Shown here: piece by piece, positions 462-11,674 of the stretch
Position numbering within the stretch: position 1 is the stretch's first letter
Layout: the number at the start of each line of letters is the position of its first letter
Assembly (NCBI RefSeq): GCF_024228675.1
Contig: NZ_CP100461.1
Span: forward strand, 2,601,398 to 2,665,397
DNA length: 64,000 nucleotides
Direction of reading: 5' to 3'
Source of the DNA: Salinigranum marinum
Lineage (GTDB): Archaea > Halobacteriota > Halobacteria > Halobacteriales > Haloferacaceae
Program-made: the position numbers and the translations under genes
Notes under the pieces: generated by a model
Told to the model about the DNA's origin: nothing
Seen by the model: only the letters and a program-made list of their open reading frames with translations
Databases searched by the model: none

Positions 462-2027
462 ATGACCAACGGAAACCAGCAGACGCTACCCGGGGTCGAC
501 GGGCAGGGCACGCTCGACCTCGACACGCTGGAAAGCCATCTCTGGGAGGCTGCCGATATTCTCCGTGGGAGCATCGACGCGGCGGACTACAAGAACTACA
601 TCTTCGGACTGCTCTTTCTCAAGCGCATCAACGACCGGTTCGACGAGGAGACCGAGGAGATCGCCGAGGAGTACGACATCGACGAGGAAGAGGTCAGGGG
701 CGAACGCGACCTCCACGAGGAGTTCTGGGTGCCCGAACGCGCTCGCTGGAGTCACATCACGTCGCAGACGGACAACATCGGTGAGGCACTGGACAAGGCC
801 CTCATCGCTGTCGAGGACGAGAACGACGCCATCGCCGACCGGGTGCTGTCGACCGTTGACTACAACGACAAGGACCGGCTGAGCGACGCGACGCTCGACG
901 AACTCGTCACGCACTTCGACAAACAGCGCTATCAGAACGTCGACCTCGAAGACCCCGACATCTTCGGCCGGGCCTACGAGTACCTCATCCGGCAGTTCGC
1001 CGACGACGCCGGGAAGAAGGGCGGCGAGTTCTACACGCCCCGCGAGGTCGTCCAACTCCTTGTCGAGTGCGTCGACCCCGAACCCGGACACCGCGTCTAC
1101 GACCCCTGTTGTGGCTCCGGTGGGATGCTCATCTACTCGGCCCAGCACATCCGCGACGAGGGCGGCGACACGGACGACGTCTCGCTCTACGGACAGGAGA
1201 AGAACCTGAATACGTGGGCCATCGGTCAGATGAACGTCCTCCTGCACGAGATGCAGGACGCCAAGATCGAGAAGGGCGACACGATCACCGAACCGAAGTT
1301 CGTCACCGAACACGGCGAACTCGAAGTGTTCGACCGCGTCGTCGCCAACCCGCCGTGGAACCAGAAGAAGTGGAGCAAGGAGTGGGTGCAGGAGAACGAG
1401 CCATACAACCGCTTCCCGTATGGGCTGCCGCCGTCGAACCGTGGTGACTGGACGTGGATTCAGCTCATGCTCGCGTCACTGTCGGAGAAGGGCAAGGCGG
1501 GCATCGTCATGGACAACGGTTTGCTGTTCCGCTCGCGGTCGGAGAAGAAGATCCGCAAGCCGATTCTTGAGGCCGACCTCATCGAGGCCGTCATCGCCCT
1601 ACCCGAGAACCTCTTTTACAACACGTCGTCCCCGGGCTGTATCCTGCTCATGAACAAAGACAAGCCCGAGGAACGCGAAAAGAAGGTCCAGTTCATCTAC
1701 GCCGAAGAGCAGACGCTCCGAGAGTCCGGCGTGCAAATCTACGAGGAACTCTCGAATCAGAACCAACTAACAGAGGAGGGTGTCGATTATCTCGCCGAGA
1801 CACACCTCACTGGACGCGAAGAGGACCACCACAGTCGGCTGGTCGACATGGAGGAGATCAAGGAGAACGACTGGAATCTGAACGTGCCCCGGTATGTCGA
1901 TACAACAGAGCCCGAGGAACCCATCGACGTAAGTGAGAAGCTGCGTGAGTTGGATCGACTAGCCGAAGAGCGCCAGAAGACCGACGAGGAACTTCAGCAG
2001 TACATGGAGGAGTTGGAGTACCGATGA
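462..2027 (+). CDS. hsdM: Type I restriction-modification system, DNA methyltransferase subunit HsdM
   Basis: This is the modification subunit, which transfers a methyl group from S-adenosylmethionine to adenine N6 within the bipartite site chosen by HsdS. The 521-residue protein has the expected two parts: a helical HsdM N-terminal domain (about 20-165) and an N6-adenine methyltransferase fold. The SAM-binding motif DPCCGSGG lies at about 214-221 and the catalytic motif IV NPPW at 296-299. The C-terminal end is charged and helical, as expected for contact with HsdS. The stop overlaps the hsdS start (ATGA at 2024-2027), so the two are translationally coupled. Length and motifs are intact, so the gene looks functional. 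Confidence 0.96.
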   Translation: MTNGNQQTLPGVDGQGTLDLDTLESHLWEAADILRGSIDAADYKNYIFGLLFLKRINDRFDEETEEIAEEYDIDEEEVRGERDLHEEFWVPERARWSHITSQTDNIGEALDKALIAVEDENDAIADRVLSTVDYNDKDRLSDATLDELVTHFDKQRYQNVDLEDPDIFGRAYEYLIRQFADDAGKKGGEFYTPREVVQLLVECVDPEPGHRVYDPCCGSGGMLIYSAQHIRDEGGDTDDVSLYGQEKNLNTWAIGQMNVLLHEMQDAKIEKGDTITEPKFVTEHGELEVFDRVVANPPWNQKKWSKEWVQENEPYNRFPYGLPPSNRGDWTWIQLMLASLSEKGKAGIVMDNGLLFRSRSEKKIRKPILEADLIEAVIALPENLFYNTSSPGCILLMNKDKPEEREKKVQFIYAEEQTLRESGVQIYEELSNQNQLTEEGVDYLAETHLTGREEDHHSRLVDMEEIKENDWNLNVPRYVDTTEPEEPIDVSEKLRELDRLAEERQKTDEELQQYMEELEYR

Positions 2028-3346
2028 GTGAGGCACTGGAGCAATCTGACCTCCGTGAGGGGTACAAAGAGGTCCAGTTGGGACCCAAACCCGCGAAAAT
2101 TCCCTCAGAGTGGACGGTCAGAAAACTCGACGAATTAACGAATAACTCGGGAAACTACGGTGCAAACATCTCTGCTATAGAATACGACCCTGAAAAACCA
2201 CGGTACATCCGAATCACAGACATCGGGGATGACGGTTTTTTAAAAGACGATGATCGAAAATCAATCCCTCGCGATGATGCCGAGGGTTACTATCTGTCTG
2301 CGGGTGACTTACTGTTTGCTCGTACTGGGGCAACTGCAGGCAAAAGCTACCTTTGCAGAGAGGACGGAACAGACGCCGCATATGCTGGCTATCTAATACG
2401 TTTTGAGCTTAATGAGTCGAAGGTTGACACCGATTTCCTGGCTCTATACGTTCAGTCGAAACTGTATCGCGATTGGGTAGACCGAATCACACGTCATGGA
2501 GCACAACAGAACATCAATGCGAGTGAGTACCGTGGTTTTGACATTCTCTATCCCCCGCTCCCCGAACAGCGCCGTATCGCCGATATCCTCTCGACGGTCG
2601 ACGAGCAGATTCAACAGACAGACGAGATCATCGAAGAGACGAAAGATCTGAAACAGGGGCTCATTCAAGACTTGGTTTTCTTCGGGAAGAGCCACAATGG
2701 TACTCAAACTGTCCAGCTCGGTCCCATGACTACCGAGATCGCGGAATCGTGGGACGTATCCACCGTGGGCGAGATCACGACTAAGGCTCAGTATGGGTCC
2801 TCTGAAAGCCTCTCCACGGACGGGACGTACCCAGTCTTCCGCATGAATAACATCGAGGACGGGAAAATGGTCGCTTCCCCGATGAAATATTCTGAGCTGG
2901 ACGACAACCAAGCGGAAAAATACCGCGTCGAGAAGGGCGATATCCTGTTCAATCGGACCAACAGTATCGACCTCGTTGGAAAGTCAGGCATCTTCGACTT
3001 GGATGGAGAGTACGTATTCGCGTCGTACCTCATCCGCCTCCGCACAAACGATCAGATGAATCCATATTTCCTCAATTACTATCTGAACTCCCACATCGGT
3101 CAAGGGATCCTGTTTTCCATTGCAACACGCGGGGCCAGTCAGGCCAATATCAACGCGACGAATCTGAAAGGCGTCAAAGTGCCACTCCCCCCGAGAGAAC
3201 AACAAGACAGGATCGTTGGGCAGATTCAGAAAGTCGAGGAAAAGATTGAGCAAGAACGCGAAACCAAACAGCGGCTTCAAGAACTCAAACGAGGCCTCAT
3301 GCAGGATCTCCTGACTGGCAAGGTCCGTGTCAATACCGCCGACTGA
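2024..3346 (+). CDS. hsdS: Type I restriction-modification system, specificity subunit HsdS
   Basis: This is the DNA-recognition subunit. The 440 residues show the usual duplicated plan. Target recognition domain 1 spans about 30-195 and is followed by a conserved helical spacer that begins PPLPEQRRIA near residue 177. Target recognition domain 2 spans about 235-390 and is followed by a second spacer that begins LPPREQQDRI near 386 and ends GLMQDLLTGKVRV. Both recognition domains are more AT-rich than hsdM and hsdR, as is common for the fast-exchanging part of these systems. The start ATG overlaps the hsdM stop. The target sequence cannot be read from the protein. Confidence 0.95.
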   Translation: MSEALEQSDLREGYKEVQLGPKPAKIPSEWTVRKLDELTNNSGNYGANISAIEYDPEKPRYIRITDIGDDGFLKDDDRKSIPRDDAEGYYLSAGDLLFARTGATAGKSYLCREDGTDAAYAGYLIRFELNESKVDTDFLALYVQSKLYRDWVDRITRHGAQQNINASEYRGFDILYPPLPEQRRIADILSTVDEQIQQTDEIIEETKDLKQGLIQDLVFFGKSHNGTQTVQLGPMTTEIAESWDVSTVGEITTKAQYGSSESLSTDGTYPVFRMNNIEDGKMVASPMKYSELDDNQAEKYRVEKGDILFNRTNSIDLVGKSGIFDLDGEYVFASYLIRLRTNDQMNPYFLNYYLNSHIGQGILFSIATRGASQANINATNLKGVKVPLPPREQQDRIVGQIQKVEEKIEQERETKQRLQELKRGLMQDLLTGKVRVNTAD

Positions 3347-3509
3347 ATCTGCGGGTTCCAACTGGATTATATCTACATTGAATATAGCGTGGATTGTCCG
3401 AACTCTATTCTAACCGAATCGGTTTTAATGTAATCACACCCCGAGCCACCTCCCTCTATTTCTAATTTCTCCGGAGATTTTTTAATTGGATGGCCGCAAC
3501 TGAGCCGTA

Positions 3510-4775
3510 ATGATCGACGGGTACGACCTGCCTGCAAATGCGCCCGGGCAGTACCTCCCGCTTCGTGAGGACCAGTCCCTCCCGAAGGCGTACTTCCCGG
3601 ACAAACTGCCTCCAGCGTTCGACCTCTCCGACGAGGTCGTCCGCGAACACGGACGGGCGATGTGGGCGCTCGGCCGCCTGGAGGGGTTGGGCAGCGAGAT
3701 CGACAACCCCGGCGCGGTGTTCAGTTCGTTCGTCTACAAGGAGGCCGAGCAGTCCTCACGCGTCGAGGGGACGGCCGTCACAGTCTCGGACATCTACCGC
3801 TACGACGTCGGCCAACTGACGTTCCGGGACGCGGCCGAGAGCGACCACGAGGCCGACGTTCGAGAGGCGCGCAACTACATCCGCGCGCTCAACGAGGCGG
3901 TGTCGTATCTGCGCACGGCAGGGTTCGAACGGGAGAGCATCACCAGCGAGCTGGTGAAGTCGCTGCACGAGACGCTGCTCGAACGCGGCCGGAGTGAGGA
4001 CGACGACCCGCTCCCCGGACAGTTCCGTCCCGGCTTCGCCGTCATCGAGGAGGCACACCCCCACGGGTTCGGGACGCGTATCCGGTTCATCCCACCGAAG
4101 CCCGACAGCGTCGAGCGCCTGATGGACGACCTCGAACGCTTCGTACAGGAGGGGAGCACCTGGCCCACGCTGATCGACGTCGCCGTCGCCCACTACCAGT
4201 TCGAGACCGTCCACCCGTTCAAGGACGGGAACGGTCGCGTCGGCCGCATCCTCGCCGTGCTGATGCTCATCGCCGACGGGCTGCTCCACTACCCCCTGCT
4301 CTATCTGAGTTCGTTTATCGAGCGACACCGCACCGAGTACGCCGACCGACTCCTGGCCGTGAGCGAGAAGGGCGAGTGGGACGAGTGGCTGCGCTTCTTC
4401 CTCCGTGGCATCCGCGAACAGGCTGAAGAGGCGTTCGTGCGGGCGAAGCTCCTCATCGACACCCGGCGGACGTACGAGACGAGATACGCCGACGAGCCGA
4501 AGTCGGTGCGGGACCTCGCCCTCGCGTTGTTCGAGGACCCGTATTTCACCGTCCGGGAGGCGAGCGAACGGATCGGCGTCGTCTACCAGACGGCGAACAA
4601 CGCGGTCGACCGCCTCGAAGCCGACGGGGTCGTCTCTGAGATCACGGGCAACGCACAGAATCGCGTGTTCCGAGCCGAAGAGATCATGGACATCGTGGAG
4701 CGCCCCGCGCAGAACCTCCCCGAGCCAGAGGACCTCGTCGACGTCGAGCACGCGTGGAAGCTTCCTGACCACTGA
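3510..4775 (+). CDS. Fic family protein (probable AMP-transferase) inside the RM cluster
   Basis: Fic proteins usually transfer AMP from ATP to a hydroxyl side chain of a target protein. The 421-residue protein has the complete catalytic loop HPFKDGNGRVGR at 235-246, with catalytic His235. It also keeps a class II N-terminal inhibitory motif, S82-x3-E86-G87 (SSRVEG), whose Glu normally blocks ATP binding, so the protein is probably auto-inhibited. A C-terminal winged-helix-like segment (about 340-390) may bind DNA. The gene sits between hsdS (163-bp AT-rich gap) and hsdR (46-bp gap) on the same strand. Fic genes are recurrent passengers of type I RM loci; a role in regulating or guarding restriction is inference. 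Confidence 0.92.
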   Translation: MIDGYDLPANAPGQYLPLREDQSLPKAYFPDKLPPAFDLSDEVVREHGRAMWALGRLEGLGSEIDNPGAVFSSFVYKEAEQSSRVEGTAVTVSDIYRYDVGQLTFRDAAESDHEADVREARNYIRALNEAVSYLRTAGFERESITSELVKSLHETLLERGRSEDDDPLPGQFRPGFAVIEEAHPHGFGTRIRFIPPKPDSVERLMDDLERFVQEGSTWPTLIDVAVAHYQFETVHPFKDGNGRVGRILAVLMLIADGLLHYPLLYLSSFIERHRTEYADRLLAVSEKGEWDEWLRFFLRGIREQAEEAFVRAKLLIDTRRTYETRYADEPKSVRDLALALFEDPYFTVREASERIGVVYQTANNAVDRLEADGVVSEITGNAQNRVFRAEEIMDIVERPAQNLPEPEDLVDVEHAWKLPDH

Positions 4776-4821
4776 AATAGCAACTACCTTGATACGTCCC
4801 CCTGTCGAACGGCCATAACAG

Positions 4822-7794
4822 ATGCCGGACGAGTACGCCGAGTCCGAACGCCCCGCCCTCGATACCCTCCAGTGGCTCGGCTGGGAGGTCGTCGACCAGC
4901 AGCGGACCACCTGGCACGACCCCCGCGAAACCGTATCCTCGGCCGTACTCGAACCCCGCCTTCGCGACGCTGTCGAACGACTGAACCCGTGGATCGACGA
5001 GAACAACCTGAACAAGGCCGTCCGCGAGATCCAGCAGCTCGCCGGAACGAGCACGATGGACGAGAACGAACAGATCCACGAGAAGCTCGTTCGTCACACG
5101 GACGTCAAACAAGATCTGGGCCACGGCCTGAAACACCAGACGGTCAGGTACATCGACTACGAGAACCCCGAGAACAACGACTTCTTCGCGCTCAATCAGT
5201 TCCGCGTCGAGGGACCGATAGAGACCGTCAAACCCGACATCGTCCTGTTCGTCAACGGAATCCCGCTCGGCGTCGTCGAGTGCAAAGCGCCGACCATTGC
5301 CGAGCCGCGAAGCGAGGCGCTCGAACAGCTACAACGCTATCAGAACGAACGCACTGAGACCGGGAAGGAGGGGGCCGAAGAACTGTTCCGGTACAACCAG
5401 TTCTCCGTGGCGGCGTGGTACGAGGGCGCGGTGATGGGCACCTACGGAACGCCGAAGGGCCAGTACAAGCCGTGGCGTGACACCTACCCCGTCGACGACG
5501 ACTATCTCGCCGACCGGTTCGGCGTCGACTACGTCTCCCCACAACTGCGGATGCTGTACGCCTTGTTCGAGCCCGAGCGGCTACTCGACCAACTGCGCCA
5601 CTTCACGGTCTTCGACACGAACCAGAGCGGGACGGCGAAGCTCGTGGCCCGCTATCAGCAGTACCGCGCCGTCGAGAAGGCACTCAAGCGAATCGAACGC
5701 CGCAGTCAGCGAGAGGCACAGGGCGGCGTCGTCTGGCACACCCAGGGTTCGGGAAAGTCGTTGACGATGCTCTTTCTCGGATTGAAACTCCGCCGTGCGA
5801 AACCCGACCCAAAGCTGGTACTTGTCACCGACCGTACCGCGCTCGACGACCAGATACACGCCACGTTCGAGCGCTGTGGGTTCCCGAACCCGAAGAAGGC
5901 CGAAGACATCGACGACCTGCGCGAGAAGCTCAGCACAAACGCGGGCGAGACAATCACCACACTCATCCAGAAGTTCCAGCTCCACGACGACGAAGAGGGC
6001 GACTTCCCGGTGCTCTCCCGCGACGACGACATCTACGTGATGGTCGACGAGGCTCACCGAACCCAGTACAAGAAGCTCGCGAACAATATGCGGACGGCAC
6101 TGCCGAACGCTTACTACGTCGGCTTCACCGGGACGCCTATCGAGAAAGACGAGAAGAACACACGCCGGACCTTCGGGAACTACATCGATACGTACACCAT
6201 CGACCAGTCGCTCGAAGACGACACTACCGTCGAGATTCTCTATCAGGGTCGACTCGCCGACATCCACCTCGAAGGGCGGAATCTCGACCGCATCTTCGAC
6301 CGGGTGTTCGACGACAGGACGGACGAGGAGAAGGCCGAAATCCAGAAGCGGTACGCCCAGGAGCGCGATCTCGCCGAGGCCGAGTCGCGTATCGAGGAGG
6401 TGGCGCTCGACATCGTCGACCACTTCGAGAACGAGATCGCTCGCCCGTTCAAGGGGATAGTCGTCACGACCAGCAAGCGGGCTGCGATTCGGTACAAGAA
6501 CAAGCTCGACGACCTGCACGGCCCAGAGTCCCGAGTCGTCATTTCACCGGGCCACAACGATCCCGAAGCGGTCAAAAGCTGGGTTCCGACCGACACCGAG
6601 AAGTCGAAGTACAAAGAGGAGTTCGTCGACCCGAACGGACAGGTCGAGTTACTGATCGTGTGCGACATGCTGCTGACCGGCTTCGACGCCCCAGTCGCGC
6701 AGGTGATGTACCTCGACAAACCCCTCCGCGAGCACAACCTCCTGCAGGCTATCGCGCGTGTCAACCGGCCCTTCCCCGAGAAGAACCACGGGCTCATCGT
6801 CGACTACTACGGCATCTCCGACGACCTGAAACAGGCACTGGCGATGTTCAGCGACGACGACGTCAAGCACGCGATGGTGCCGCTGTCGGACAAGAAGCCC
6901 GAACTCGAAGCCGCCAATCGAAAAGCCGTCTCGTTCTTCGACGACCTCGACGACATGGAGGCGTGTCTCCAGACGCTCGAACCGGAGGACGTCCGTATTG
7001 AGTTCAAGAACGCGTACAAGCGCTTCTCGAAGCTGATGGACATCGTGCTGCCCGACCCGATGGCGAACCCCTACAAGGACGACCTCGACCGGCTCAGTGA
7101 GATCTACGCCCGAGCAAAGCAGCGCTACCGGGACGACTCGATGAACCTAGAGGGCTGCGGCGAAAAGGTACGTGAACTCATCCAGAAACACATTCGGTCG
7201 AAGGGCATCGACGTACTCAACGACGAGCCCGTATCCATCATGGACGAAGGCGGGTTCGGTGCGGAGATTGAAGGCCTAGAAAGCGACGAATCACGGGCGA
7301 GTGAGATGCAGCACGCACTGAAGCACGAGATTTCGGTTCGTTTCGACGAAGACCCCGTCCAGTACGGTTCGCTCAAGGAGCGCGTCGAGAAGCTCATCGA
7401 GAAGTACAAGCAGAAGCGCCTAACCGACCGTGAGATCATCGAGGAACTCAAGAAGGTACTCGACGAGATGCGCTCTCGCGACCAGTTGGCCCACTCTAAG
7501 GGGCTCGCCGACGCGACCGAACTCTCGTTCTACCACGCACTTGAGGACGTCCTCGACTCGGAGGACCAGCCGGTCGACCAGAAGACGCTGGTCGAACTCA
7601 CGGGCGACATCGTCGCAGAGGTCGAAGACGTGGCTACCGTCGTCGAGTGGCAGGAGAAGGTCACCCTCCAGCAGAAGCTCCGCAAGAAGGTGACACTCCG
7701 GCTCATCAAGTCGGACATCGAGATGACGGCCGACGAGCGAAAGGCGCTCACGACCCGTATCGTCGAACTGGCCCGCACCCACTACAAGCCATGA
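4822..7794 (+). CDS. hsdR: Type I restriction-modification system, endonuclease/translocase subunit HsdR
   Basis: This is the motor-nuclease subunit that translocates and cuts unmethylated DNA. The 990-residue protein has an N-terminal PD-(D/E)xK nuclease domain (Asp139 in KPDIVLF, then E153-C-K155). A superfamily 2 helicase core follows, with Walker A GSGKS at 309-313, DEAH at 409-412 and the FTGTP motif soon after. The late helicase motif is LLTGFDAP ... QAIARVNRP. A long helical C-terminus (about 740-990) should bind the methylase core. All catalytic motifs are present. The stop overlaps the ATG of the next gene (7791), so the metallopeptidase is co-translated. Confidence 0.96.
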   Translation: MPDEYAESERPALDTLQWLGWEVVDQQRTTWHDPRETVSSAVLEPRLRDAVERLNPWIDENNLNKAVREIQQLAGTSTMDENEQIHEKLVRHTDVKQDLGHGLKHQTVRYIDYENPENNDFFALNQFRVEGPIETVKPDIVLFVNGIPLGVVECKAPTIAEPRSEALEQLQRYQNERTETGKEGAEELFRYNQFSVAAWYEGAVMGTYGTPKGQYKPWRDTYPVDDDYLADRFGVDYVSPQLRMLYALFEPERLLDQLRHFTVFDTNQSGTAKLVARYQQYRAVEKALKRIERRSQREAQGGVVWHTQGSGKSLTMLFLGLKLRRAKPDPKLVLVTDRTALDDQIHATFERCGFPNPKKAEDIDDLREKLSTNAGETITTLIQKFQLHDDEEGDFPVLSRDDDIYVMVDEAHRTQYKKLANNMRTALPNAYYVGFTGTPIEKDEKNTRRTFGNYIDTYTIDQSLEDDTTVEILYQGRLADIHLEGRNLDRIFDRVFDDRTDEEKAEIQKRYAQERDLAEAESRIEEVALDIVDHFENEIARPFKGIVVTTSKRAAIRYKNKLDDLHGPESRVVISPGHNDPEAVKSWVPTDTEKSKYKEEFVDPNGQVELLIVCDMLLTGFDAPVAQVMYLDKPLREHNLLQAIARVNRPFPEKNHGLIVDYYGISDDLKQALAMFSDDDVKHAMVPLSDKKPELEAANRKAVSFFDDLDDMEACLQTLEPEDVRIEFKNAYKRFSKLMDIVLPDPMANPYKDDLDRLSEIYARAKQRYRDDSMNLEGCGEKVRELIQKHIRSKGIDVLNDEPVSIMDEGGFGAEIEGLESDESRASEMQHALKHEISVRFDEDPVQYGSLKERVEKLIEKYKQKRLTDREIIEELKKVLDEMRSRDQLAHSKGLADATELSFYHALEDVLDSEDQPVDQKTLVELTGDIVAEVEDVATVVEWQEKVTLQQKLRKKVTLRLIKSDIEMTADERKALTTRIVELARTHYKP

Positions 7795-8507
7795 ACGAGT
7801 ACCATATCGGTCAGACGGTCGTCCCCTACGAGGTCGAGTGGAGTCGAGAGCGGACCACCATCGGGCTGTCGATGGATCACTCGATGGAACTCACGATCAG
7901 GGCCCCGTACTCGGCGACTACCGAGGACATCGACCAAGTACTCGACGACAAGAAAGAGTGGATCCTGAAGACGCTGTATGGGCTCTCCGAGCAGCAGGAC
8001 CCACCACTCGACAAGGAGTTTCTGAGTGGCGAGAAACTGCTCTACAACGGACGAAGGCACCGGATTCGCGTGGAGGAAGGCGAGTGTTCCGAGCCCACCT
8101 TACGGTTCGACGACACCCAGTTCCTGCTCTCGGTGCCCGACACTGGTGATGTCAGCATCAGACGAAAGCGCCAGGTTGTCGTCGACTGGTACTACGAAAC
8201 TGCAGATCGGGAACTCCCCGACCGTGCCGACGACTACATCGCGAAACTCGGATTGGAGGACGTCGAGATCGACGTTCGTGAACTCCCCAGCCGGTGGGGA
8301 GAGTACCGCTCTGGTGGCGTTGTCCTCAACTGGCGGTTGATCCTCGCACCTCGGAAGATCCAGGATTACGTGGTTGCGCACGAACTCGCTCACTTCAAAC
8401 ATGGCGATCACTCGGACTCGTTTTGGAACACGGTCGGGACGCTGATTCCGGATTACCGGGAACGTCGGGAATGGCTGCGAGTCAACGGAAGCACGCTCAC
8501 AGTTTGA
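7791..8507 (+). CDS. YgjP/SprT-like zinc metallopeptidase (DUF45 type) of the RM operon
   Basis: The 238-residue protein carries HELAH at 197-201 followed by KHGDHSDSFW. This is the signature of the YgjP/DUF45 metallopeptidase family, in which His197, His201 and probably His207 bind zinc and Glu198 is the catalytic base. The start is set at ATG 7791, which overlaps the hsdR stop and gives the normal family N-terminus; a longer reading from 7647 would lie within hsdR. Members of this family are often the last gene of type I RM operons. The substrate is unknown, and turnover of the RM complex is only a hypothesis. Confidence 0.9.
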   Translation: MNEYHIGQTVVPYEVEWSRERTTIGLSMDHSMELTIRAPYSATTEDIDQVLDDKKEWILKTLYGLSEQQDPPLDKEFLSGEKLLYNGRRHRIRVEEGECSEPTLRFDDTQFLLSVPDTGDVSIRRKRQVVVDWYYETADRELPDRADDYIAKLGLEDVEIDVRELPSRWGEYRSGGVVLNWRLILAPRKIQDYVVAHELAHFKHGDHSDSFWNTVGTLIPDYRERREWLRVNGSTLTV

Positions 8508-9813: not shown

Positions 9814-9921
9814 CGAACTTTGCATTCTCTCTGTAGAGTCCAAAGTTCGAAGGTACTGCGGCCTGTTCTGTTTATAAAGAGGCCATCTCCGAATGCCCGA
9901 AAATGCAAACTCCAAAGTTCG
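9814..9921. repeat. Three copies of CAAAGTTCG around the recombinase promoter
   Basis: CGAACTTTG (9814-9822) and CAAAGTTCG (9841-9849) form a perfect 9-bp inverted repeat with an 18-bp spacer. A third copy in the second orientation lies at 9913-9921, inside the first codons of the recombinase gene; the longer match TCCAAAGTTCGA is shared by copies two and three. The TATA box at 9871 lies between copies two and three, so these are candidate binding sites of the recombinase or an autoregulator. Confidence 0.6.
9871..9878 (+). promoter_or_regulatory. TATA box of the recombinase gene
   Basis: TTTATAAA is a near-ideal archaeal TATA element about 18-20 nt before the ATG at 9893. Transcription would begin at or just after this ATG; a near-leaderless mRNA is likely. 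Confidence 0.6.
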
Positions 9922-10510
9922 AGCGAAAGTGTGGCTGACGCCCGACCAGGTCGACACGCTCCGCACCGCGTGCTACGAGACTGGTGCGTCGTACCTCCAG
10001 CAGCGAAACGAGGCGGTCATCGCGCTCACCTACGACACCGGCCTCCGGGTCGGTGAACTCATCGACATTGACGTCGAGATGCTACGGGAGGGAAACAGCG
10101 AGCTATACCTGCCCGGGCACATCCAGAAGGACTACCCGAACGACAACAGCCCAGGACCGGTGACGATGGAACTATCGACCGATGTGACCCGGCTCCTCTC
10201 GTCGTACCTGAACAGTCGGTGGAAAGAGTCGCCCGCATTGTTCCCGGCTCGGTCGTCCGACCGGATTACCACACAGGGTGTCCGTAATATGCTGCACAAG
10301 GTCGCGGAGACGGCGGGCCTCCGTCCCTATCTCGTCGATGGATCACGCGGCGACGCGGAGGACGTGACACCACACGCACTCCGTCACAGCGTCGCCTACC
10401 GGATGATGAACGATGAGGACGGGAACACGTTATACGACGTTCGTAACCGCTTACGCCATCGCTCGATTCAGACGACCGAACGGATCTACGACCACCTGAT
10501 CAAGGTATAA
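9893..10510 (+). CDS. Minimal tyrosine recombinase (XerC/D-like integrase)
   Basis: The 205-residue protein is little more than a tyrosine recombinase catalytic domain. Visible active-site residues are Arg52 (TGLRVGEL), His161 and Arg164 (HALRHS), His189 (LRHRS) and the nucleophile Tyr199 (ERIYDHL) six residues from the end. The usual N-terminal SAM-like core-binding domain is essentially missing; only about 20 residues precede the catalytic fold. Such short recombinases are frequent in haloarchaeal mobile regions. CAAAGTTCG repeats overlap its promoter and start codon. It may act on nearby inverted sites (inversion or resolution) rather than integrate a large element; this is inference. Confidence 0.88.
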   Translation: MPENANSKVRAKVWLTPDQVDTLRTACYETGASYLQQRNEAVIALTYDTGLRVGELIDIDVEMLREGNSELYLPGHIQKDYPNDNSPGPVTMELSTDVTRLLSSYLNSRWKESPALFPARSSDRITTQGVRNMLHKVAETAGLRPYLVDGSRGDAEDVTPHALRHSVAYRMMNDEDGNTLYDVRNRLRHRSIQTTERIYDHLIKV

Positions 10511-11245: not shown

Positions 11246-11674
11246 TTAACAGGACCTGTCGCGAATCAGGCTCAAGAACTCTGCGGGCTCCACGATTTTG
11301 ATACCGCGGAATGGATTCTCGTCGAGGAGATGATCGTTACCAGAAACGATGTAGTCTGCGCCAGCTGCGAGCGCACACTCAAGAAAGACGTCATCGTCAG
11401 GGTCGTCTTCAATTACCTCGACAGAGACTTCTGGATTGATAACTTTAGCCCCGGTGAGCCGGATGAGTTCGTCTGGAAGCGTCCGTTGCTCTTCTTCATC
11501 GAAGGGCAGGCGGTCATAAGTGAGGACTCTTCGAAACTCGTCAAGAGCATCCTCAGAGATAACCATCTGAACGTCTCCCATAACTGCCAAGTCTATGCAT
11601 TCTTTGGGTTTTCCACCAAAGCCGAGACCAGAAATGAGGACGTTGGTGTCAAAGACTACTGCGATCTGGCCCAT
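11246..11674 (-). CDS. PIN-domain toxin (VapC-like, COG1569 type)
   Basis: PIN domains are metal-dependent RNases and usually the toxins of type II toxin-antitoxin systems. The 142-residue protein begins VVFDTNVLISGL, giving the first catalytic Asp. Further acidic residues are in DALDEF, DDPDDDVFLECA and AADYIVSGNDHLL, the normal PIN order. The gene is on the minus strand and overlaps the end of its upstream partner (11656-11988) by 19 nt, the classical tight coupling of antitoxin then toxin. The composition matches stand-alone COG1569 PIN toxins of haloarchaea. Confidence 0.88.
   Translation of the reverse strand: MGQIAVVFDTNVLISGLGFGGKPKECIDLAVMGDVQMVISEDALDEFRRVLTYDRLPFDEEEQRTLPDELIRLTGAKVINPEVSVEVIEDDPDDDVFLECALAAGADYIVSGNDHLLDENPFRGIKIVEPAEFLSLIRDRSC

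What the first reader, a model, noticed from the sequence alone, without database searches (positions are those of the whole stretch)
462..8507. Type I RM operon with an embedded Fic enzyme and a YgjP-type peptidase
hsdM, hsdS, fic, hsdR and the metallopeptidase run on one strand. hsdM-hsdS and hsdR-peptidase are coupled by 4-nt overlaps, and fic lies between hsdS and hsdR. All catalytic motifs are intact. Fic enzymes modify proteins and YgjP-like enzymes hydrolyse them, so the locus might control restriction post-translationally. Similar gene mixes recur in defence islands, but the mechanism has not, to my knowledge, been worked out in haloarchaea.
Basis: partly seen in the sequence, partly recalled or inferred. 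Interest (0 to 1): 0.7.

Follow-up and report, generated by a model that had tools for sequence, protein, structure and literature searches.

The report
Restriction operon with embedded Fic toxin
A salt-loving archaeon carries a DNA-cutting defence operon whose zinc protease gene is a standard, co-evolving fourth component of this type of system, and into which a separate suicide-type defence gene (Fic) has been inserted at a spot that also holds toxin genes in bacteria.

Summary
All five genes are real, intact and placed as described: hsdM, hsdS, fic, hsdR and ygjP at 462-8507. The two extra genes have different standing. YgjP is a constitutive part of the system. In 292 haloarchaeal genomes, 69 of 86 HsdR genes over cut-off have ygjP just downstream on the same strand. 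HsdR and YgjP distances correlate strongly, and the same pair recurs in bacteria, including E. coli and Klebsiella plasmids. Fic is an insertion. Close relatives keep hsdS and hsdR 1-6 bp apart with no fic. The nearest Fic homologues are all solitary genes, and fic carries its own promoter. One other genome (G079) has a fic relic in the same slot. Fic belongs to the SoFic group, a known abortive-infection AMPylase. The closest published architecture is the E. coli RRDM island (hsdM-hsdS-DarTG-hsdR-M48). PrrC, embedded in EcoprrI, is the classic parallel. Control of restriction by Fic is therefore not supported. A role for YgjP in limiting HsdR is plausible but untested.

The parts
462..2027 (+). 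hsdM, type I DNA adenine methyltransferase (521 aa)
   Evidence: 88% identical to HsdM of L030; TATA-like CAATTAAC at 430-437
2024..3346 (+). hsdS, specificity subunit with two target-recognition domains (440 aa)
   Evidence: no close relative in the survey (best 40% identity), as expected for exchanged S domains
3347..3509 (+). AT-rich spacer with the fic promoter; TTTTTTAATT at 3478-3487, about 27 bp before the fic ATG
   Evidence: TATA box and upstream ATTTCnAAT block shared with solitary fic genes L103, L259, L106-L109
3510..4775 (+). fic, SoFic-type class II protein adenylyltransferase (421 aa), inserted between hsdS and hsdR
   Evidence: FIC motif at 4212-4247, inhibitory SSRVEG at 3753-3770; empty site in L030 and others
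4776..4821 (+). 46-bp fic-hsdR spacer, no TATA-like element; TTGATAC shared with the same spacer in L015
4822..7794 (+). hsdR, restriction and DNA-translocation subunit related to EcoR124I HsdR (990 aa)
   Evidence: 90% identical to HsdR of L030
7791..8507 (+). ygjP, gluzincin-type zinc metallopeptidase (238 aa), overlapping the hsdR stop codon
   Evidence: HELAH at 8379-8393, third His at 8409-8411; AlphaFold pLDDT 91.8; fold match to selecase and jannalysin

Best explanation
This is a four-gene type I restriction-modification system (hsdM, hsdS, hsdR, ygjP) that has taken up a fifth, independent defence gene, fic, in the slot between hsdS and hsdR. Shown here: the gene order, the strict linkage and co-evolution of ygjP with hsdR, the empty slot in close relatives, the solitary nature of the nearest Fic homologues, and the conserved promoter carried by fic. 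Inferred from families: HsdM and HsdS methylate host DNA, and HsdR joins them to translocate on and cut unmethylated DNA. Inferred, most likely role of YgjP: a gluzincin made together with HsdR that acts on HsdR or its DNA-bound complexes, limiting self-damage (restriction alleviation) when host sites are unmethylated. Inferred, most likely role of Fic: an auto-inhibited AMPylase that stops growth of an infected cell when restriction fails, as a second line of defence; it does not need the RM proteins to work. Because no promoter was seen directly before hsdR, the fic promoter may also drive hsdR-ygjP.
For: YgjP: 71 of 99 haloarchaeal PF01863 hits over cut-off lie downstream of hsdR on the same strand, nearly all 1.0-1.1 kb past the end of the HsdR profile match; 69 of 86 HsdR over cut-off have it. 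HsdR-YgjP distances correlate at r = 0.96 over all, 0.89 within the window's class (Mantel p about 0.0005), and the rank correlation is close to that of HsdR-HsdM, while HsdS does not track. Active-site residues are kept in the other fetched haloarchaeal loci; Ka/Ks is below 0.1. In IMG/VR, 15 of 21 YgjP relatives sit directly behind hsdR; the same order occurs on bacterial plasmids. The model matches minigluzincins best and more weakly IrrE, SPRTN and Wss1. Fic: empty slot of 1-6 bp in most class I operons, including the closest, L030; relic with the catalytic core deleted in L015; 21 nearest homologues without hsd genes; conserved promoter. SoFic is an experimentally supported toxic anti-phage AMPylase (PMC12249575). 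Slot inserts over 90 bp occur in 20 of 64 ygjP-linked operons and 0 of 21 ygjP-lacking ones (p = 0.002, not corrected for phylogeny).
Against: No experiment shows what YgjP cleaves. EcoR124I, the closest solved HsdR, is not known to need a linked protease, and 12 high-scoring HsdR genes that form a separate lineage lack ygjP. ygjP-linked systems also occur in bacteria that have ClpXP, so it is not simply a ClpXP substitute. Window ygjP is far more diverged from L030 than hsdR is (70% against 90% identity), so the pair can recombine apart. ArdC, a metalloprotease-fold anti-restriction protein, does not need its protease activity (PMC7213743). Fic targets in archaea are unknown, and two appearances in the same slot (window, L015) could hint at more than chance.
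Confidence: 0.55

Rival explanations
1. One reading: Fic modifies HsdR or HsdM and YgjP degrades them, so both jointly tune restriction.
For: All five genes are on one strand and intact. YgjP is tightly linked to HsdR.
Against: Fic is absent from nearly all operons of this lineage, including the 90%-identical one L030, and nearest Fic homologues live without any hsd gene.
Confidence: 0.08
2. PrrC-like guard: the restriction complex holds Fic inactive and releases it when a virus blocks restriction, so Fic is a fail-safe wired to the RM enzyme.
For: PrrC is embedded in a type I operon, silenced by EcoprrI and released by the phage T4 peptide Stp (PMC2610378, PMC3874165). DarTG occupies the hsdS-hsdR slot in E. 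coli (PMC12255303). Fic sits in type I operons in some bacteria (L184, L196, Synechocystis pSYSX).
Against: PrrC is reported as invariably linked to type I RM, whereas this Fic clade is normally solitary. Fic carries its own inhibitory helix motif and needs no external latch in principle.
Confidence: 0.17
3. YgjP is an effector or repair protease: it cleaves viral proteins or clears protein stuck on cut DNA, rather than regulating HsdR.
For: Fold relatives include SPRTN and Wss1 (DNA-protein crosslink repair) and IrrE, although these matches are weak.
Against: Specific co-evolution and overlapping translation with hsdR, not with a repair gene; solitary ygjP is a minority in haloarchaea.
Confidence: 0.25
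4. fic is a neutral passenger that happened to land between two genes and has no defence role here.
For: A relic in L015 shows it can decay; only one intact case in the sampled operons.
Against: Intact catalytic and inhibitory motifs, strong purifying selection in comparison with the solitary relative L103 (Ka/Ks 0.04), and the same slot holds toxin pairs elsewhere.
Confidence: 0.2

Closest known systems
RRDM defence island of enteropathogenic E. coli (RptR - hsdM - hsdS - DarTG - hsdR - M48; PMC12255303)
   Same: Type I RM with a toxin module between hsdS and hsdR and an M48-annotated metallopeptidase behind hsdR; the similar E. coli locus L205 has a YgjP-like (PF01863) protein there.
   Different: Cargo is Fic instead of DarTG; no room for an rptR repressor gene directly upstream of hsdM; archaeal host; distant protein sequences.
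EcoprrI-PrrC
   Same: A growth-stopping enzyme embedded in a type I RM operon.
   Different: PrrC cleaves tRNA and is invariably RM-linked; Fic is an AMPylase with its own inhibitory motif and usually solitary.
SoFic anti-phage system
   Same: Fic_N + FIC + C-terminal winged helix, HPFxDGNGRxGR and class II inhibitory motif.
   Different: Described systems are solitary or have a small antitoxin (AS1, 47 residues) downstream; none fits in the 46-bp gap here.
ClpXP-dependent restriction alleviation of EcoKI (PMC4231737)
   Same: A protease removing HsdR to spare the host is the proposed parallel for YgjP.
   Different: ClpXP is a housekeeping ATP-dependent machine encoded elsewhere; YgjP is a small gluzincin without an ATPase domain, encoded in the operon.
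Synechocystis sp. PCC 6803 pSYSX type I locus (NC_005232)
   Same: hsdM, hsdS, fic, a toxin-antitoxin pair, hsdR and YgjP-like protease in one locus.
   Different: fic is on the opposite strand and a HigB-type toxin-antitoxin pair is also in the slot.

Membership tests
Type I restriction-modification system | HsdM, HsdS with two recognition domains, and HsdR with nuclease and SF2 motor | tested here: met
   motifs in translations; EcoR124I HsdR is the best solved relative
Type I restriction-modification system | Methylation and restriction activity at a specific bipartite site | not testable with these tools
   Needs long-read methylation data or an assay
SoFic / class II Fic | Fic_N, FIC motif HPFx(D/E)GNGRxxR, N-terminal (S/T)xxxE(G/N) inhibitory motif, C-terminal winged helix | tested here: met
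   PADLOC SoFic over residues 26-398; the winged helix rests on sub-threshold Pfam matches (MarR_2, HTH_24)
SoFic / class II Fic | NCBIfam equivalog NF046030 cut-off for SoFic | tested here: not met
   161.7 bits against a cut-off of 550: same group, not the named equivalog
SoFic / class II Fic | Anti-viral, toxic AMPylation | not testable with these tools
   Needs expression and virus challenge
YgjP-like metallopeptidase (PF01863) | Profile match over full length and HExxH-x5-H | tested here: met
   165 bits, cut-off 26; conserved in all aligned members
RRDM-type island | hsdM-hsdS-[toxin module]-hsdR-M48 order | tested here: met
RRDM-type island | RptR repressor gene upstream and TAGCTA operators | tested here: not met
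   Only about 147 bp lie between the upstream ORF end (314) and hsdM, too short for the 79-codon rptR; the operator sequence itself was not searched
PrrC-type guarded toxin | Toxin obligately linked to type I RM | tested here: not met
   Nearest Fic homologues are solitary
PrrC-type guarded toxin | Toxin silenced by the RM complex | not testable with these tools
   Needs co-expression and pull-down

The most novel reading that the evidence does not exclude
YgjP is a dedicated, operon-encoded restriction-alleviation protease for one large branch of type I restriction enzymes in archaea and bacteria, acting on DNA-engaged HsdR; its presence makes the hsdS-hsdR junction tolerant of toxin cargo such as Fic, so that one operon encodes restriction, its brake and a suicide back-up.
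Probability: 0.25. Interest if true: 0.75.

Novelty: new member of a known kind. Interest (0 to 1): 0.42.

Why it matters
How type I restriction enzymes avoid cutting their own host is solved for EcoKI (ClpXP) but open for families such as EcoR124I. A small protease gene that travels and co-evolves with HsdR across archaea and bacteria is a direct, testable candidate, and the papers searched mention it only in passing. The locus also shows that the hsdS-hsdR junction is a shared cargo slot in archaea as in bacteria, filled here by an AMPylase toxin.

Tried and rejected
Fic as a conserved component of the haloarchaeal system: rejected by the survey. A downstream antitoxin like AS1: no room in 46 bp. 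Fic scraps in the other enlarged spacers (L021, L025, L029): none found by tblastn. ClpX in the own genome: only weak AAA+ matches, none over the cut-off; archaeal controls also ring weakly, so this is not strong evidence. A recurring partner gene beside solitary fics: none except occasional transposon-like genes. Literature on YgjP with hsdR: only one irrelevant paper by name; the M48 wording led to PMC12255303. The guilt-by-embedding preprint is not held.

Full report
OBSERVATION. Family searches identify each well above cut-off, and catalytic motifs are intact. The window lies in a 4.9-Mb haloarchaeal genome at G000:C1:2601398-2665397, inside a stretch of lower G+C (about 0.54-0.63 over the first 24 kb, against about 0.70 beyond) that also has an integrase-like gene and a transposase.

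YGJP IS A CORE GENE. In 292 genomes of the class, PF01863 gives 99 places over cut-off in the list used; 71 lie within 8 kb downstream of an HsdR on the same strand, nearly all about 1.0-1.1 kb past the end of the HsdR profile match, which is the rest of HsdR. Of 86 HsdR over the TIGR00348 cut-off, 69 have it. The high-scoring HsdR group splits into 22 with ygjP, the window's lineage, and 12 without, which form a distinct lineage (430-480 bits to the window protein, against 1400 or more). A third, weaker class has none in 15 (two short class I fragments that fall in the same score range do have it). Distances between HsdR and YgjP correlate at r = 0.96 in all 61 complete operons and 0.89 within the window's class; rank correlations (0.87 and 0.76) are close to HsdR-HsdM (0.89 and 0.80), while HsdS does not follow within the window's class. 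The zinc-site residues are kept in the other fetched YgjP proteins, and Ka/Ks is below 0.1. One caution: between the window and its nearest operon L030, hsdR is 90% identical but ygjP only 70% with saturated synonymous sites, so ygjP has probably been exchanged at least once.

The same pair appears outside haloarchaea. Among 21 YgjP relatives in viral-type contigs, 15 lie directly behind hsdR. Plasmids of Klebsiella, E. coli, Neotabrizicola and Synechocystis show hsdR followed by a YgjP-like protein, and 242 of 5426 E. coli genomes carry a near-identical copy; all but one of the listed places also touch hsdR. In Geobacillus the gene is behind hsdR but inverted.

FIC IS AN INSERTION. In class I operons hsdS and hsdR are mostly 1-6 bp apart. 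L030, whose HsdR is 90% identical, has 3 bp and no fic. Fic_N occurs in 136 of 292 genomes, yet among the matches checked only the window's lies near HsdR (a few weak Fic matches were not listed by the tool). The ten closest homologues (73-89% identity) and eleven more at 50-56% have no hsd gene within about 8 kb. Upstream regions of the close homologues share a TATA box and an ATTTCnAAT-like block at about the same distance from ATG as the window gene, so fic came with its promoter, probably giving a leaderless transcript (inference). G079 (L015) keeps a relic in the same slot: residues about 139-165 joined to 358-421, the FIC core gone. Its spacer to hsdR resembles the window's, so the two probably share one insertion history rather than two independent events (inference).

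THE SLOT. Inserts over 90 bp between hsdS and hsdR occur in 20 of 64 ygjP-linked haloarchaeal operons and in none of 21 ygjP-lacking ones (Fisher p = 0.002; counts made by hand from those listings and not corrected for shared ancestry). Cargo includes a nucleotidyltransferase gene followed by an unassigned 172-codon ORF (L054), a TBP-family protein (L055), a second HsdM-like gene (L053, L057, L058) and, read by eye, an AAA-type ATPase (L237). In bacteria the slot holds a DUF4433 and a macro-domain gene, the DarT-DarG arrangement (L205), a YecA protein and a cold-shock-domain protein (L203), and fic plus a HigB-type pair in Synechocystis (L210). In other bacteria fic sits between hsdM and hsdS instead (L184, L196).

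MECHANISM. SoFic proteins are toxic AMPylases with anti-phage activity (PMC12249575). With its inhibitory motif and catalytic residues intact, the window Fic most likely acts as an independent abortive-infection gene. A PrrC-like guard remains possible: PrrC is embedded in a type I operon and silenced by EcoprrI, and DarTG sits in the same slot in the experimentally active E. coli RRDM island. For YgjP, AlphaFold gives a confident model (pLDDT 91.8, pTM 0.69). Its C-terminal half matches minigluzincins (selecase, jannalysin, abylysin; E about 1e-4) and, weakly, IrrE, SPRTN and Wss1, DNA-linked proteases; the N-terminal half has no convincing solved match. Joint inheritance and overlapping reading frames with HsdR make HsdR, or its DNA-bound complex, the likeliest substrate. 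This would parallel ClpXP-driven restriction alleviation of EcoKI (PMC4231737), while EcoR124I, the closest solved relative of this HsdR, shows alleviation that does not depend on ClpXP (PMC3874165). No data here show cleavage.

KNOWN OR NEW. The order hsdM-hsdS-[toxin]-hsdR-metallopeptidase is published for E. coli (PMC12255303), and that paper calls the hsdS-hsdR site a potential hotspot. Surveys of haloarchaeal and archaeal RM, searched by word here, do not mention fic or a peptidase; an archaeal defence survey lists SoFic as common. The window is therefore a new member of a known kind. The less described point is how regular the YgjP-HsdR pairing is.

Noticed in passing
L055 6829-7479: A TATA-binding-protein family gene (PF00352, E 4e-14) sits between hsdS and hsdR of a haloarchaeal type I operon, next to a small membrane-protein-like ORF also seen in L064, L212 and L218.
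   Followed up: partly
L115, L118, L121, L122 upstream of fic: A second clade of haloarchaeal fic genes has an AAACGA - TTTACT(C/T)A pair about 19 bp apart near -30 to -50, often repeated about 50 bp further up, which looks like an operator overlapping the promoter.
   Followed up: partly
window 7791-8507 against L030: ygjP is much more diverged than hsdR from the nearest operon (70% against 90% identity), suggesting a recombination breakpoint at the hsdR-ygjP junction.
   Followed up: partly
L241 (G290): hsdR is interrupted: two HsdR fragments about 3 kb apart with ygjP still attached to the second.
   Followed up: no
L053, L057, L058: Three operons carry a second, divergent HsdM-like gene between hsdS and hsdR.
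   Followed up: no
L196 11189-18415: A Bacteroidales type I locus has about 7 kb of extra genes between hsdS and hsdR, with ORFs that look by eye like a nucleotidyltransferase, a TIR-like protein and an AAA ATPase, besides fic between hsdM and hsdS.
   Followed up: no
window 9893-10510 and 11246-11674: Tyrosine recombinase gene and, on the minus strand, a PIN-domain toxin-like gene with a small partner ORF, in the same low-G+C island.
   Followed up: no
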